The notes under the pieces were generated by a model, which was not told where the DNA came from, made no database searches, and saw only the letters and a program-made list of their open reading frames with translations. From a virus: a stretch of DNA of 43,954 bases. Made by a program: the position numbers and the translations under genes. This document shows, one piece after another, positions 38,194 through 43,261 of this stretch. The stretch spans positions 1-43,954 of the IMG/VR virus record IMGVR_UViG_3300035698_004542. The stretch is one strand, 5' to 3'. Numbering within the stretch: the first letter of the stretch is position 1; every line of letters begins with the position of its first letter.

Positions 38194-38463
38194 ATGAAAA
38201 TAACTGACAACAAGTTCAACATCGGAGATGTGATAACAATTGAATGGGATGGTAATTCAAGACACGGGAATCTTGGAAAGATCGTCGGAGCATGGGGTAG
38301 TTGCAATATATTGTTATCCAAAGACTATCCATATCCCCCACTCAATATCGATTGCCAGTGGGTGTATAACGTGGAATTCAATGATGGAATAGGATTAAAT
38401 ATAGGAGAATACTCTGAACCAGTATTGAAAGCCCCTTTACAATCCGACAGCGAGGGGGAGTGA
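38194..38463 (+). CDS. Small beta-barrel (KOW/SH3-like) protein (89 aa)
   Basis: FNIGDVITIEWDGNSRHGNL and GKIVGAWGSCNILL have the pattern of a KOW/SH3-type barrel, followed by acidic residues. Its 3' end (TTTACAATCCGAC) is repeated at the 3' end of the 142-aa gene downstream. Function unknown. Confidence 0.55.
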   Translation: MKITDNKFNIGDVITIEWDGNSRHGNLGKIVGAWGSCNILLSKDYPYPPLNIDCQWVYNVEFNDGIGLNIGEYSEPVLKAPLQSDSEGE

Positions 38464-38525
38464 CGTTACAATCCGGGTAGAGTTTTCTAACTATTCTAAA
38501 CCTATACCGTGTAGCGTTAAGCGGG

Positions 38526-38531: not shown

Positions 38532-38544
38532 TATGAGGCAACAA

Positions 38545-38619
38545 TGCGGCGTTAGCTCATTGGGAGAGCGCAATGTTGAGTAAGACATTGAGGGACTGGG
38601 TTCGATTCCCAACGCTGCA
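38545..38619 (+). tRNA. tRNA-like gene, isotype undetermined, enlarged anticodon arm
   Basis: Canonical A-box and B-box are visible: TTAGCTCATTGGGAGAGC and GGGTTCGATTCCC. The acceptor arms pair (TGCGGCG with CGCTGCA, or GCGGCGT with ACGCTGC), the D-stem is GCTC/GAGC, and the T-stem is TGGG/CCCA. The anticodon arm is 20 nt rather than 17: CAATG, a 10-nt loop TTGAGTAAGA, CATTG; or 6 bp with an 8-nt loop. No CCA is encoded. The anticodon cannot be assigned with confidence, so it could be a diverged phage tRNA, a decoy or a frameshift-suppressor-like RNA. Confidence 0.6.
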
Positions 38620-38641
38620 CTAGCATCAATTGAATCGAAAA

Positions 38642-38660
38642 GGGACACATATAGTGTCCC
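38642..38660 (+). other. Hairpin after the tRNA-like gene
   Basis: GGGACAC-ATATA-GTGTCCC, perfect 7-bp stem, 22 nt after the tRNA-like gene. The following plus-strand sequence (CTATAAAAAT) is not a T-run, so it is not a good rightward terminator; it may be a processing signal. Confidence 0.55.
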
Positions 38661-38674
38661 CTATAAAAATCGAA

Positions 38675-38697
38675 GGCGCGACTTTGGGAAGTCCGCC
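38675..38697 (+). other. Second leader hairpin with TGGG loop
   Basis: GGCG(C)GACTT-TGGG-AAGTCCGCC: nine base pairs with one bulged C, about 30 nt before the ATG of the 142-aa gene, leaving its AGGGAGG site exposed. Confidence 0.55.
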
Positions 38698-38726
38698 TGG
38701 ATGGTAGCCTACAAGGGAGGCGACAT

Positions 38727-39155
38727 ATGAATGATACCAAGAATACCCCCAAAACGCAAGACAAAAACCAACAAGTATCCATTACCATTACGGAAGCGAC
38801 TACAATTGAGTTTTACCGCGAACGACGTTGGAATGGCGTTGACCCTTACTCATGGTGTAAAGAGAATGATCGCTATATCGATAAGTTGAGTAAAGCATCT
38901 TTGCACCGCCTAATTCGTGTGGCTGAAAACCTTCAATGGGAACACCGTGAACACGACAACGTATACATGGGCGGTTATTATGCGCCGTCCATAAGTGTAG
39001 AACAGATATTCACCCTTGTCTCAAACGGTGACGGTAGCGGCAACTTCCTTGCAGGCTGGTTACGCCAGTTGTGCGGATGCCCCCTTTGTTGGGATGATGA
39101 AACGGGCGCAATCACCACTTTACAATCCGACGAAAATAAGCTAGAATCGGAGTAG
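38727..39155 (+). CDS. Hypothetical protein (142 aa)
   Basis: ATTIEFYRERRWNGVDPYSW and a middle helix (KASLHRLIRVAENLQWEHRE), then LCGCPLCWDDETGAITTLQS. CGCPLC is a possible zinc half-site. No family recognised. AGGGAGG lies before the ATG, and the 3' end carries a promoter for the downstream RNA. Confidence 0.55.
   Translation: MNDTKNTPKTQDKNQQVSITITEATTIEFYRERRWNGVDPYSWCKENDRYIDKLSKASLHRLIRVAENLQWEHREHDNVYMGGYYAPSISVEQIFTLVSNGDGSGNFLAGWLRQLCGCPLCWDDETGAITTLQSDENKLESE
39119..39147 (+). promoter_or_regulatory. Internal promoter for the pseudoknot leader
   Basis: TTTACA (5/6), 17 nt, TAGAAT (5/6), inside the last codons of the 142-aa gene. The expected start (near 39154) is exactly where the structured RNA begins. 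Confidence 0.7.
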
Positions 39156-39290
39156 AAAAAAGTGGACTGACCGCCACCAAAGTAACATACCATCACGCCC
39201 GAATCCTGTTTTTCGAGCGACTCTTGACTACCCTTGTGATGGGGGGAGCGGTCAGCTAAGAGTCTAGAGCCGCTCAAAGAATGGGATTTT
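39154..39290 (+). ncRNA. Candidate pseudoknotted leader RNA (possible riboswitch)
   Basis: Three perfect helices are visible. Stem a: CTGACCGC (39167-39174) with GCGGTCAG (39248-39255). Stem b, nested inside: CCATCAC (39190-39196) with GTGATGG (39236-39242). Stem c: GACTCTT (39219-39225), inside the loop of b, with AAGAGTC (39258-39264) outside stem a, extended by GAGC (39215-39218) with GCTC (39272-39275). The crossing order makes an H-type pseudoknot with stem a' and c' almost adjacent (2 nt), suited to coaxial stacking. It forms the 5' leader of the 173-aa gene (AGGAG ahead). I do not recognise a known class. Confidence 0.62.
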
Positions 39291-39310
39291 TGATTACCTA
39301 GGAGCAAGAC

Positions 39311-39832
39311 ATGAAAGGCGAAAGCAGAAACGAACACCTGATGGGAAGTTGGTACACGATAGTATCCAAACTTGCATTAACACGGACATTCATTGGTCAG
39401 GTTTCTACTGGTTACATAAGTAACTTGCCAGCTACTTTGGTTGATGTAAAAAATCTGCCATTCCTTGATTATGACAATCCCCCAGACACCCCGCACGCCA
39501 TAATTGGTACTACCAGAGAATGGCTGCCCAAACATTTCGCAGTCCCTCATATTGCCATGTTTATTGGGTATCGATACATCAAATCAGGATATATCTATGA
39601 AATGGCTTATCACGCCAAACATATCGGGCACGATGAAGTTAAAATCGAATCAGACAGTGATAACAATTTCGATATTGACAAAATTCACAACGAAGTAGGT
39701 ACGTCACGACCACGTCTCTATGTCACCCGACAAATCAAGGCATGCTTGATGATTCTAAACAAACGCGACAATCCTATTTACGTGCTACCTGAAGATATTA
39801 CAGAAATCAATGAGGCGGTGGATAATGGCTGA
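39311..39832 (+). CDS. Hypothetical protein under the pseudoknot leader (173 aa)
   Basis: Residues 20-110 look alpha/beta (LTRTFIGQVSTGYISNLPAT, AIIGTTREWLPKHFAVPHIA) and the C-terminal region is helical (RLYVTRQIKACLMILNKRDN). No family recognised. AGGAG lies 6 nt before the ATG. If the leader is a riboswitch, this gene or its followers would be its target. Confidence 0.62.
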   Translation: MKGESRNEHLMGSWYTIVSKLALTRTFIGQVSTGYISNLPATLVDVKNLPFLDYDNPPDTPHAIIGTTREWLPKHFAVPHIAMFIGYRYIKSGYIYEMAYHAKHIGHDEVKIESDSDNNFDIDKIHNEVGTSRPRLYVTRQIKACLMILNKRDNPIYVLPEDITEINEAVDNG

Positions 39833-40985
39833 GGAATTCGACATTAAAAAGACTATCATTCGCGCTGAGCGCACCAGCGAACACCCTTACTTCTATGCAC
39901 CCCGCGCAACCGCACAATGCACCGAGCTATCATTCGAGGCAAGAGGATTATTGTTTTACCTTTTGAGCAAGCCGGATGATTGGAAGGTGCAAGTACCAGA
40001 CCTCGAACAGAAGTGCAAATCAGGGCGCGTCTATCGCATCTTAGACGAACTGGTTGAACACCGATACATCAGAAAACCACAGCGATTGAAGACCAAAGAC
40101 GGTAAGTTTAACTGGACACCTTATTTAGTCTATGCGAAACCATACCCTGAAAAACCATCCATGGCTGAACCATATATGGAAAATCAGGGTATATACATAC
40201 AAGAGACTCAGAAACAAGAGAAAACAGAAAAAGATTCTGCATCGCAAAAAAGCAGCGATGCAGGCACGCCCGAAAATTCATTCGTTCCAAAGCAAACTCC
40301 AATCCCATACACCGGACACGTTGACACTTTGAACCAACACCGTGAAATGCTTAAAACTCAAACAGTACCGCGGGCGGTATACGATGAGGATAACTACATC
40401 AGTGATAGCCACATCAAATTCCCGATTGAATCAGAGACAGCACTTATTGATTCAAAGCAAAGCGTTGAACCGGATAACAGTTCCGCCGCGCCAGACGGTT
40501 GGAGGCGCACAGAAGTCGAGGCAACTTGCAGCGAGTGCGCCAATGATGCGGCGTGGGAGAATGAGGGGCGCTTGTATTGCGAGTATCACTATACTGAGTT
40601 GACCCAGGGCGTAGAGGTGTCTGGCGAACCACCTCCACAGCAACCAAAGCGCAAGCGCAAAGGAAAACAGTTGGCGAATGACAAAGTGGTTGATGCGCTG
40701 GTGATAGAGTTTAAGTACACCGCGCCAACCAACAGCGATTACAACAATCTCAGAGGCGTGGCAAAAGAGTTGCTGGAAGTCGGGTTGACGCATGAGGATA
40801 TACCAGGGCTGGTTAAATCGGTTCGGGCTGAATCAAAGAACGAAGGCGACTGGAAGGTATCGGCGCGGTCTCTGTTGGGCAACGGCAGGGTAGGGCGTTA
40901 TATCAATCGCAGAGATATTCCGGCGGCGCAAGAGTACGCGCCTAACGCTGACACCAGCGTGTGGGGGGAACAAGGTGATGGTTAA
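39825..40985 (+). CDS. Winged-helix replication-initiator-like protein (386 aa)
   Basis: Residues about 20-100 form a winged helix typical of phage replication proteins (YAPRATAQCTELSFEARGLL, DLEQKCKSGRVYRILDELVE). The middle is disordered with a zinc motif (TCSECANDAAWENEGRLYCE plus YHY), then a basic stretch (PKRKRKGKQ), and the C-terminus is helical (NNLRGVAKELLEVGLTHEDI), similar to DnaD-like or phage O-like proteins. It probably recognises the origin and loads the primase-helicase encoded two genes downstream (inference). GAGGCGG precedes the ATG, overlapping the previous gene. Confidence 0.6.
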   Translation: MAEEFDIKKTIIRAERTSEHPYFYAPRATAQCTELSFEARGLLFYLLSKPDDWKVQVPDLEQKCKSGRVYRILDELVEHRYIRKPQRLKTKDGKFNWTPYLVYAKPYPEKPSMAEPYMENQGIYIQETQKQEKTEKDSASQKSSDAGTPENSFVPKQTPIPYTGHVDTLNQHREMLKTQTVPRAVYDEDNYISDSHIKFPIESETALIDSKQSVEPDNSSAAPDGWRRTEVEATCSECANDAAWENEGRLYCEYHYTELTQGVEVSGEPPPQQPKRKRKGKQLANDKVVDALVIEFKYTAPTNSDYNNLRGVAKELLEVGLTHEDIPGLVKSVRAESKNEGDWKVSARSLLGNGRVGRYINRRDIPAAQEYAPNADTSVWGEQGDG

Positions 40986-41196
40986 CATATATGATTTTGA
41001 TACAGAATTTGTTGCCCCGGCTGATGATGAATACAATGCTTTAGAATGCTGTAAATGTTCAGGGGAGGGTCTATATATCATGGATTATGAACATGAGAAT
41101 ATCAGTGATGATTGCAGAGTGCAATTTATTGCATGTCCCCGTTGCGGAGCGAGAATGGTGCGGTTTGTATCTATTTCGAGGAATGGCGATGAATGA
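40978..41196 (+). CDS. Small zinc-ribbon protein (72 aa)
   Basis: LECCKCSGEGLYIMDYEHEN and FIACPRCGARMV: two CxxC pairs form a zinc ribbon. It overlaps both the initiator gene and the primase-helicase gene, so it is likely a co-translated partner. GGGGGG-type site upstream of the ATG. Confidence 0.6.
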   Translation: MVNIYDFDTEFVAPADDEYNALECCKCSGEGLYIMDYEHENISDDCRVQFIACPRCGARMVRFVSISRNGDE

Positions 41197-43261
41197 ACTT
41201 AAAGCTAGGGGAATTGATATAGCTGCTGGTCGTATGCACTGGCGCGTAGTTAAAGGCGGCTGGCAATATCCAGTCTGCAATACCAGCGGCGAACAGGTTG
41301 CAGAACGGTTCAAAGCATACAAAGGTGGCACGCCAAAGTATAGCTGGATACCATCTAAACCGGACAACGTTGATTACTACTTTGCACCGGGGGTCAAAGG
41401 TGCCATGGGCGGCAAGCTATGGTTTGCGTCAGGGGAGCCAGATGTCTTAACTCTGATGGAGGCGGGATATGAGAATGTTTTTTGCACCCTCCACACCGAA
41501 CTCAAGATACCCGATAGCTTTATACCCCTATTGCAGTGGCTAGAAATTGACACACTCCTCCACGCGCCCGATGTTGATGATACGGGGCGGGAGTCCGCGC
41601 GCAGGTTGCAAGTGGCGCTCAAGGACACCGGGATAGAGTTGCACCTGTACCAGCTTCCGGGCGAACCGGACAGCAAGGCAGACTTGAATAGCGTGTGGAT
41701 AGATTGTGAGTTCGACAAGTCACGGTTCAAAGTTGCGACAATGGAACGGATGGAATTGCCAGCGATTGAGATTGAACCAATGGATGAAATGTTTCGCCCG
41801 TCGCATCATCCCGAACATTTGACGGGAAGCGGAGATGTGCCGCCAACATTCCTGGCGGCGATTGTTGGCAAGTTGAGAGAGACAACTGGGAATCCAATTC
41901 ATTTTGGTTCAAGTGGGTGGACTACCAAAAATTTCAAGTGCATCTGCCCCAACCATGATGACAAGATAGCCAGTGCGGGATGGAAGTTCGACGGTGTTTA
42001 TAACTGCTTCGTGTGTGGCGCGATGAATGCCAAACAAACAGGAGAGTTATTGAATCTCAATATTCGGGATTACTACGAGGATGAGCCAGTGCCGATTGTA
42101 ACATCATCAATGATACCGCCAGCAGTACCAGAGGTTGAAACGGTTGTCCAATCGCCAGCGGAGAAGGCGCGGGCGGTATTGGAGGGCGAACCGGAACCGG
42201 AAAGCAAAACGCCACAGTTGTATTACAATGGCAACGATTTATTGACGGGATATATCGGTTTCATCAACGGCGACAAAGAATACATGGGTCGCCCGGTGAA
42301 GTTCCCATTCCGTAATATGCACAAGTTCGGCGGGTTCTGTCGGGATATTTTAACCGGTATGGTAGTGTTAATCGGCGGTGAAAGCGGTAGTGGTAAAACT
42401 ACACTGCTTGAAACTATGTCAGACAACCTGTGCGAGCGCGGCGTAAACAATGTTTACATTAGTAAAGAGTGGGGCAAGAAACCAATTACCGGGCGGCGCA
42501 TTGGGCGCAACATGACTGACGGAACATTCACACTGGAGGATGCTCTGGCGTATGCCTCGAATGGATACGAACTGCCAGCGAAAAAACGGCAAGCGATAGC
42601 GGAGGTCTGTAAGCGCTTGCGGTCATTACCCGGTACGGTTCATGTTTTTGGAAAAGAGAAAAAAGACGGCACGCGCCATTATCTGGAGGATATGCTGGCA
42701 AAATTAACAGTCTATATTCTACAACACCGGGCAAGTAATCATGACATTCGGGTTGTGTTCTGGGATTACGTACAGCTATACAGCCTGCGAAAATATATAC
42801 CCGGTTCAAGCAATGTAGAGGAAACCAAACTGGATGTATTCAAAGACTACTGTGAGATAATGGACGTAGTAGGCATTACGACATCGCAGATAACGCAGGG
42901 TGCATCCAACCGGGTTCGGGGTCATGGGCAAAGTCATTACGGCGGCTGGCTGAATCTGCTTGATTGTCAATTCCTACGGGAAGACAAGGCCAATCTGGGT
43001 TTAATGTGGCAACAGAAATACTACACCGTCGAACAAATGCAATCCAAGTTATCCGACAAGGAATGGATTGATGCTTGTATTCGTAACGCTGGTTATTCCG
43101 ATAAGGTCAATCGGGGATGGATCTATCACGATGAGATTGGCGATCCGGTCAAGACTGGCGATGCGGTTCTACTGGTACGCAAGAACAGTCTACAAAGCAC
43201 CGATAGAGCTATTGGTAAATTCGAGATGGACTGGAAACACGGAAAGGTGGTGGAACGGTGA
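41189..43261 (+). CDS. Primase-helicase (Toprim, CHC2-like zinc, DnaB/RecA-type helicase)
   Basis: 690 aa. The N-terminal region has Toprim signs: FASGEPDVLTLMEAG (Glu83) and DTLLHAPDVDDTG (Asp128, Asp130). A zinc motif of the CHC2 primase type follows (CPNHDDK about 253-256 and CFVCG about 273-276), i.e. after the Toprim rather than before. The helicase half has Walker A GGESGSGKTTL (about 396-406), Walker B IRVVFWDYVQLY (Asp526) and the DnaB-like TTSQITQGASNRVRGHGQSH. It should unwind DNA and make primers at the phage fork. GAGGA lies 6 nt before the ATG, overlapping the previous stop. Confidence 0.88.
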   Translation: MNELKARGIDIAAGRMHWRVVKGGWQYPVCNTSGEQVAERFKAYKGGTPKYSWIPSKPDNVDYYFAPGVKGAMGGKLWFASGEPDVLTLMEAGYENVFCTLHTELKIPDSFIPLLQWLEIDTLLHAPDVDDTGRESARRLQVALKDTGIELHLYQLPGEPDSKADLNSVWIDCEFDKSRFKVATMERMELPAIEIEPMDEMFRPSHHPEHLTGSGDVPPTFLAAIVGKLRETTGNPIHFGSSGWTTKNFKCICPNHDDKIASAGWKFDGVYNCFVCGAMNAKQTGELLNLNIRDYYEDEPVPIVTSSMIPPAVPEVETVVQSPAEKARAVLEGEPEPESKTPQLYYNGNDLLTGYIGFINGDKEYMGRPVKFPFRNMHKFGGFCRDILTGMVVLIGGESGSGKTTLLETMSDNLCERGVNNVYISKEWGKKPITGRRIGRNMTDGTFTLEDALAYASNGYELPAKKRQAIAEVCKRLRSLPGTVHVFGKEKKDGTRHYLEDMLAKLTVYILQHRASNHDIRVVFWDYVQLYSLRKYIPGSSNVEETKLDVFKDYCEIMDVVGITTSQITQGASNRVRGHGQSHYGGWLNLLDCQFLREDKANLGLMWQQKYYTVEQMQSKLSDKEWIDACIRNAGYSDKVNRGWIYHDEIGDPVKTGDAVLLVRKNSLQSTDRAIGKFEMDWKHGKVVER

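What the first reader, a model, noticed from the sequence alone, without database searches (positions are those of the whole stretch)
39119..39310. Promoter-driven pseudoknotted RNA leader upstream of an unknown gene
Three perfect helices of 7-8 bp cross to form an H-type pseudoknot (stems a, b and c in the ncRNA entry), and a TTTACA-17-TAGAAT promoter in the end of the preceding gene predicts a start within a few bases of the structure. A 155-nt gap is rare in this compact genome. A leader riboswitch, an RNA-protein regulatory site or a stand-alone RNA are all possible; I recognise no known class.
Basis: partly seen in the sequence, partly recalled or inferred. Interest (0 to 1): 0.8.

Follow-up and report, generated by a model that had tools for sequence, protein, structure and literature searches.

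The report
Folded leader RNA before phage replication genes
Just before the DNA-copying genes of an uncultured bacterial virus lies a short non-coding stretch whose RNA would form one long hairpin, with a loop that exactly matches the RNA's own beginning; it is probably a built-in control element, but no relative has been found to prove it.

Summary
Their exact crossing arrangement is rare: 1 of 2000 shuffles, 0.2% of genome windows. This is a 29-bp imperfect hairpin (P3, 39201-39229/39261-39289; 22 Watson-Crick pairs, 4 G-U, 3 mismatches), the best ungapped stem of its size in the 44 kb. None of 20,000 shuffles reach it. Helices a and b are the pairing of P3's 31-nt loop with the RNA's 5' tail. 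With P3 held fixed, 0 of 4000 shuffles reproduce that pairing. Helix c is a weaker register of P3's own letters and is probably not formed. Full-length P3 and a+b strain each other. Nascent-chain folding predicts that b and then a form first and later yield to P3. The element precedes an orphan 173-aa gene, a RepO-like gene and a primase/helicase. I read it as a cis-acting leader switch for the replication operon, with phage P4 CI RNA or P1 C4 RNA as closest analogues. No Rfam match and no homologue turned up in phages, IMG/VR, plasmids or genomes, so covariation is untested and the mechanism is inferred. Structure likely real (about 0.75); mechanism about 0.4.

The parts
39119..39147 (+). sigma-70-like promoter TTTACA-17-TAGAAT inside the end of ORF 38727-39155; predicted start about 39154
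   Evidence: consensus scan, 10 of 12 matches; start position inferred from usual -10 spacing
39156..39310 (+). non-coding gap holding the structured RNA
   Evidence: stops in all + frames; the minus ORF 38978-39337 that crosses it scores below phage genes on codon use
39167..39174 (+). a, 5' arm (tail block) CTGACCGC
   Evidence: 8 bp perfect with 39248-39255
39190..39196 (+). b, 5' arm (tail block) CCATCAC
   Evidence: 7 bp perfect with 39236-39242
39201..39229 (+). P3, 5' arm of the long hairpin
   Evidence: 22 Watson-Crick + 4 G-U of 29 positions with 39261-39289; 0/20,000 shuffles as good
39230..39260 (+). P3 loop, 31 nt, carries both blocks complementary to the 5' tail
   Evidence: tail-loop duplex -29.9 kcal/mol; 0.1% of 31-nt genome windows pair as well
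39236..39242 (+). b, 3' arm GTGATGG in the P3 loop
39248..39255 (+). a, 3' arm GCGGTCAG in the P3 loop
39261..39289 (+). P3, 3' arm
   Evidence: base-pair probability 0.0 against about 1.0 for P3; duplex -7.5 against -31.5 kcal/mol for P3
39287..39291 (+). run of five U at the foot of P3; possible weak terminator tail
   Evidence: sequence; not called by the terminator scan, which only takes loops of 3-8
39300..39304 (+). Shine-Dalgarno AGGAG of ORF 39311
   Evidence: sequence; mean unpaired probability 0.58 free, 0.49 with a+b forced
39311..39832 (+). ORF of 173 aa, no known family; first gene after the RNA
   Evidence: no significant match in Pfam, NCBIfam, PADLOC, PHROGs, PDB, phages, plasmids, IMG/VR or genomes
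39810..40985 (+). replication-initiation (RepO/DnaD-like) protein
   Evidence: phrog_428 E=2.3e-11 and others
41087..43261 (+). primase/DnaB-like helicase
   Evidence: phrog_239 E=8.3e-8, phrog_19 E=7.6e-6

Best explanation
A cis-acting leader RNA controls the phage replication operon (orphan 173-aa gene, RepO-like gene, primase/helicase, ASCH gene). Shown by computation: the 5' tail (39167-39196) is exactly complementary in two blocks to the 31-nt loop of a 29-bp imperfect hairpin (39201-39289), and both features exceed chance. Predicted: as the RNA is made, tail and loop pair first (b, then a); when the 3' arm of the hairpin emerges near 39285 the long hairpin becomes the favoured fold. Upper P3 could coexist with a+b as a pseudoknot; full P3 hardly can. 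Inferred: the balance between tail-loop pairing and the finished hairpin sets how much of the operon is transcribed or translated, or how it is processed. What shifts the balance (a protein such as the downstream gene product, ribosomes ending ORF 38727-39155 eleven bases upstream of block a, or a second copy of the hairpin acting as antisense) is not known.
For: P3 scores 36 against a maximum of 31 in 20,000 dinucleotide shuffles and is the best ungapped stem in the window on either strand; the + strand reading scores better than the minus (36 against 30) because four of its seven non-Watson-Crick positions are G-U on the + strand. With the P3 arms held fixed, 0 of 4000 shuffles of the rest give nested perfect helices of at least 8 and 7 bp between tail and loop. 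Nested folding of growing transcripts: b present at 39245, a at 39255-39280, P3 from 39285 on. Duplex energies: a -13.8, b -9.1, P3 upper -17.3, P3 lower -10.8 kcal/mol. A promoter-like site places the 5' end about 13 nt before block a. Position directly before replication genes.
Against: No homologue, so no covariation. Total folding energy is not unusual (z = -1.15). The Shine-Dalgarno site is not clearly closed in either state (0.58 against 0.49 unpaired), so a simple translational switch is not supported. The U-run lies partly inside a weak lower stem, so a simple attenuator is not supported either. In the other phage DNA held (about 278 kb) a comparable hairpin with a complementary tail and short loop occurs once (L017:5117-5185), inside an ORF, so the combination is not unique.
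Confidence: 0.4

Rival explanations
1. A trans-acting self-antisense RNA that works like phage P4 CI RNA or P1/P7 C4 RNA: the hairpin is cut out of its own leader, and its loop pairs with the 5' tail of other copies of the same transcript, switching off the replication operon.
For: Same order as in P4 as described in PMC4825925: the target (seqA) lies upstream of the processed RNA, ahead of replication genes. C4 also uses two loop blocks, a' and b' (PMC5320573). Short linkers (4, 6 and 5 nt) strain pairing within one molecule when P3 is complete, but not between two molecules. P3 is about as long as these RNAs (89 nt; C4 is 77).
Against: No Rfam C4 match even at E<=10. No downstream second target like P4 seqC: pairing of tail with 39311-39450 is matched by 19% of genome windows. 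No integrase or repressor recognised among the proteins scanned, so no sign of lysogeny.
Confidence: 0.15
2. A hairpin for RNase III or another host nuclease that separates the upstream transcript from the replication operon mRNA; the tail-loop match is secondary.
For: 26 paired positions without bulges is long enough for a double-strand nuclease (general knowledge of RNase III); intercistronic place.
Against: Does not explain the tail-loop complementarity (0/4000).
Confidence: 0.1
3. A DNA element (replication origin, protein-binding inverted repeat or remnant of a mobile element), not an RNA.
For: Lies next to replication genes; the inverted repeat is visible on both strands (36 and 30).
Against: No iterons or tandem repeats in the gap; the gap is not AT-rich (GC 0.48-0.50); pairing scores better on the transcribed strand through G-U positions.
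Confidence: 0.15
4. Chance or a decayed sequence, with no function.
For: One genome only; a comparable combination turns up once elsewhere in the phage DNA held, inside an ORF; searching a whole 44-kb genome for striking folds raises the chance of finding one.
Against: Both parts are rare independently and fall in one of the few sizeable gaps, next to a promoter-like site.
Confidence: 0.13
5. A ligand-sensing riboswitch of an unknown class.
For: Leader position and crossing pairings.
Against: No conserved core can be shown; no Rfam match; neither a clear expression platform nor a metabolic gene downstream.
Confidence: 0.05
6. A type III toxin-antitoxin pair (pseudoknotted RNA antitoxin before a toxin of about 170 aa).
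For: Order RNA then a gene of 173 aa.
Against: Antitoxin RNAs are tandem repeats followed by a terminator (PMC5086642); there are no direct repeats here and no toxin family match.
Confidence: 0.02

Closest known systems
Phage P4 CI RNA and its leader (seqA - CI - seqC) before the replication genes
   Same: Leader RNA at the head of a replication operon; target block upstream of the processed RNA in the same transcript
   Different: No second downstream target found; processing, termination and lysogeny unknown; no sequence match found
C4 antisense RNA of phages P1/P7
   Same: Two short loop blocks complementary to target mRNA; similar length
   Different: C4 has three stem-loops with its blocks in separate loops, and targets a ribosome-binding site; here one long hairpin with both blocks in one loop; no Rfam match
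T4 gene 32 leader pseudoknot (autogenous control)
   Same: Phage leader pseudoknot upstream of a replication-related gene
   Different: The T4 pseudoknot is small and lies 67 nt upstream of the start; gp32 is a known single-strand binding protein, whereas the protein here is unknown; the fold here has a 29-bp hairpin
Type III toxin-antitoxin RNAs (ToxI, CptI, TenpI)
   Same: Pseudoknotted RNA before a gene of about 170 aa
   Different: No tandem repeats, no strong terminator, no toxin homology

Membership tests
Any Rfam 15 family | Covariance-model score at or above gathering | tested here: not met
   no match at gathering; best chance match 19 bits against a cut-off of 101.7
H-type pseudoknot (structural class) | Two helices whose strands cross | tested here: met
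   a and b cross c and also P3; formation in solution not tested
P4 CI RNA-type control | Hairpin loop complementary to an upstream leader target | tested here: met
   0/4000 shuffles
P4 CI RNA-type control | Second target downstream (seqC) | tested here: not met
   downstream pairing at chance level, 19%
P4 CI RNA-type control | Processed stable RNA that causes premature termination | not testable with these tools
   needs RNA from infected cells
C4 antisense RNA | Rfam C4 model match and three stem-loops | tested here: not met
   not listed at E<=10; single long hairpin
T4 gene 32-type autogenous leader | Pseudoknot bound by the protein encoded downstream | not testable with these tools
   downstream protein is an orphan and its fold prediction failed (pLDDT 33)
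Type III toxin-antitoxin | Tandem repeat antitoxin array | tested here: not met
   no direct repeats in 39100-39320
Type III toxin-antitoxin | ToxN/CptN/TenpN-like toxin | tested here: not met
   no Pfam, NCBIfam or PADLOC match; a fold comparison was not possible
Intrinsic terminator/attenuator | G+C-rich stem directly followed by a U-tract | tested here: inconclusive
   U5 at 39287-39291, but the lower stem is A-U/G-U rich and the loop long

The most novel reading that the evidence does not exclude
A previously undescribed class of phage control RNA: a long hairpin that carries in its loop two blocks matching its own transcript's 5' end, so that each new replication-operon transcript is checked by earlier copies of the hairpin (replication control by a self-targeting RNA, convergent with P4 CI RNA).
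Probability: 0.14. Interest if true: 0.65.

Novelty: new variant of a known kind. Interest (0 to 1): 0.42.

Why it matters
Control of phage replication genes by RNA pairing within or between leader transcripts is well described in only a few phages. A single compact element of this shape in an unrelated phage would give a clean system for testing how a nascent RNA chooses between crossing folds. It also shows that the strongest signal in such a gap can be a long, loose hairpin that a reader looking for perfect helices overlooks.

Tried and rejected
Homologue searches: megablast, blastn and tblastn against phages, plasmids, IMG/VR protein scans, genome contigs and two IMG/VR DNA-pattern scans, whose hits lie in unrelated sequence without the rest of the structure. 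Terminase relatives are only 45-47% identical and hold nothing like the gap beyond chance. An attempt to compare gene order with held relatives returned nothing and is not used as evidence. Second target for the tail in the downstream gene: suggested by one MFE fold, rejected (19% of genome windows as good). Translational switch through the Shine-Dalgarno site: not supported. Programmed frameshift or readthrough at the end of ORF 38727: AAAAAAG lies after the stop, and the in-frame continuation meets TGA after four codons (sequence). Coding on the minus strand: codon score -0.03 against 0.12-0.22 for genes. Type III toxin-antitoxin: no repeats. Structure of the 173-aa protein: single-sequence AlphaFold2 unusable.

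Full report
Where it is. The window is a 43,954-base virus record from IMG/VR. It shows terminase (45-47% identical to the nearest phages and contigs), portal, head protease and major head protein on the minus strand, and a short + strand operon from 37,305 on. The finding sits in that operon, between ORF 38727-39155 and ORF 39311-39832, both without any known relative. A RepO-like gene, a primase/DnaB-like helicase and an ASCH gene follow.

The observation. All three helices are in the sequence at the places given. The exact three-helix topology (b nested in a, c crossing both) occurs in 1 of 2000 dinucleotide shuffles of the gap and in 0.2% of genome windows of the same size. The promoter-like site TTTACA-17-TAGAAT at 39119-39147 exists and is the best of its kind on the + strand of this region, but such sites are only slightly more frequent there than in shuffles. 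It would start a transcript about 13 nt before block a.

The most unusual thing is an imperfect hairpin, P3, with arms 39201-39229 and 39261-39289: 29 positions without a bulge, 22 Watson-Crick pairs, 4 G-U pairs and 3 single mismatches. Scored on an ungapped scale it reaches 36; 20,000 shuffles reach at most 31, and no other stem in the window comes close (next 29, apart from its own minus-strand image at 30). Its pairs have probabilities near 1 in the nested ensemble. Stem c uses the same letters in another register and has probability zero there; its duplex energy is -7.5 against -31.5 kcal/mol for P3. I therefore replace c by P3.

The loop and the tail. Stems a and b survive this correction and gain meaning. 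Their 3' arms both lie in the 31-nt loop of P3 and their 5' arms both lie in the 5' tail. With P3's arms held fixed and the other segments shuffled, 0 of 4000 shuffles give two nested perfect helices of at least 8 and 7 bp between tail and loop. The tail-loop duplex of -29.9 kcal/mol is matched by 0.1% of 31-nt windows of the genome. P3 and the tail-loop match are thus two separate rarities in one gap. A warning: in the other phage DNA held (about 278 kb, both strands) one comparable hairpin with a complementary tail and short loop exists, in L017, inside an ORF. The combination is rare, not unique.

Can they form together? This step is inference. Only 4 nt separate block b from P3, 6 nt separate P3 from the 3' arm of b, and 5 nt separate the 3' arm of a from P3. 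A full 29-bp A-form stem (about 80 angstrom) would need these linkers nearly stretched. If only the upper 15 positions of P3 form, a+b+P3 is an easy pseudoknot; the lower 13 pairs are weak (-10.8 kcal/mol). Nested minimum-energy folding of growing transcripts puts b first (39245), then a (39255 to 39280), then a flip to P3 from 39285. This is a prediction from a nested model that cannot represent the pseudoknot itself.

What it might do. No output step is shown. The Shine-Dalgarno site of ORF 39311 is about half open in either state, so a plain translational switch is not supported. Five U follow the foot of P3, but inside a weak A-U/G-U stem, so a plain attenuator is not supported either. The closest known arrangement is the phage P4 leader, where CI RNA, processed from the leader, pairs with seqA upstream and seqC downstream and stops transcription of the replication genes (PMC4825925). 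The two-block loop pairing resembles C4 RNA of P1/P7 (PMC5320573). The T4 gene 32 leader is a precedent for a phage leader pseudoknot under control of the encoded protein (PMC3014915). None of these is a membership claim: there is no Rfam match, no second downstream target, and no sign of lysogeny genes among the proteins scanned.

What could not be done. The fold of the 173-aa protein could not be predicted.

Verdict. Function inferred: leader control of the replication operon.

Noticed in passing
38545-38620 (+): tRNA-like gene (Rfam tRNA 40.9 bits, above its cut-off of 29, in a sensitive scan; missed by the whole-window gathering scan) whose anticodon loop is 8-10 nt long; ARAGORN cannot assign an amino acid and offers a four-base anticodon, agta.
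   Followed up: partly
38536-38726 (+): The neighbouring 263-nt gap is also structured (z = -2.85): the tRNA-like unit is followed by hairpins GGGACACATATAGTGTCCC, GGCGCGACTT/AAGTCCGCC and GCCT/AGGC around the ribosome-binding site of ORF 38727.
   Followed up: partly
38436-38448, 38465-38477, 39119-39131 (+): TTTACAATCCGAC is exactly repeated just upstream of both non-coding gaps of the + operon, with a third, weaker copy 29 bp after the first; possibly a phage promoter or regulator site, but not consistently placed as a -35 or -10 element.
   Followed up: partly
L017:5117-5185 (+): A terminase relative carries a 23-bp imperfect hairpin (ATCAAGTCCGAC...GTCGGACTTGAT) with a loop complementary to the sequence upstream, inside a 122-aa ORF.
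   Followed up: partly
32365-33910 (-): Two adjacent, slightly overlapping ORFs both match the phosphoadenosine phosphosulfate reductase family phrog_424.
   Followed up: no
26995-27129 (-): A 44-aa ORF with a hydrophobic stretch, in front of the ParB-like gene, contains a long G-U-rich self-complementary stem.
   Followed up: no
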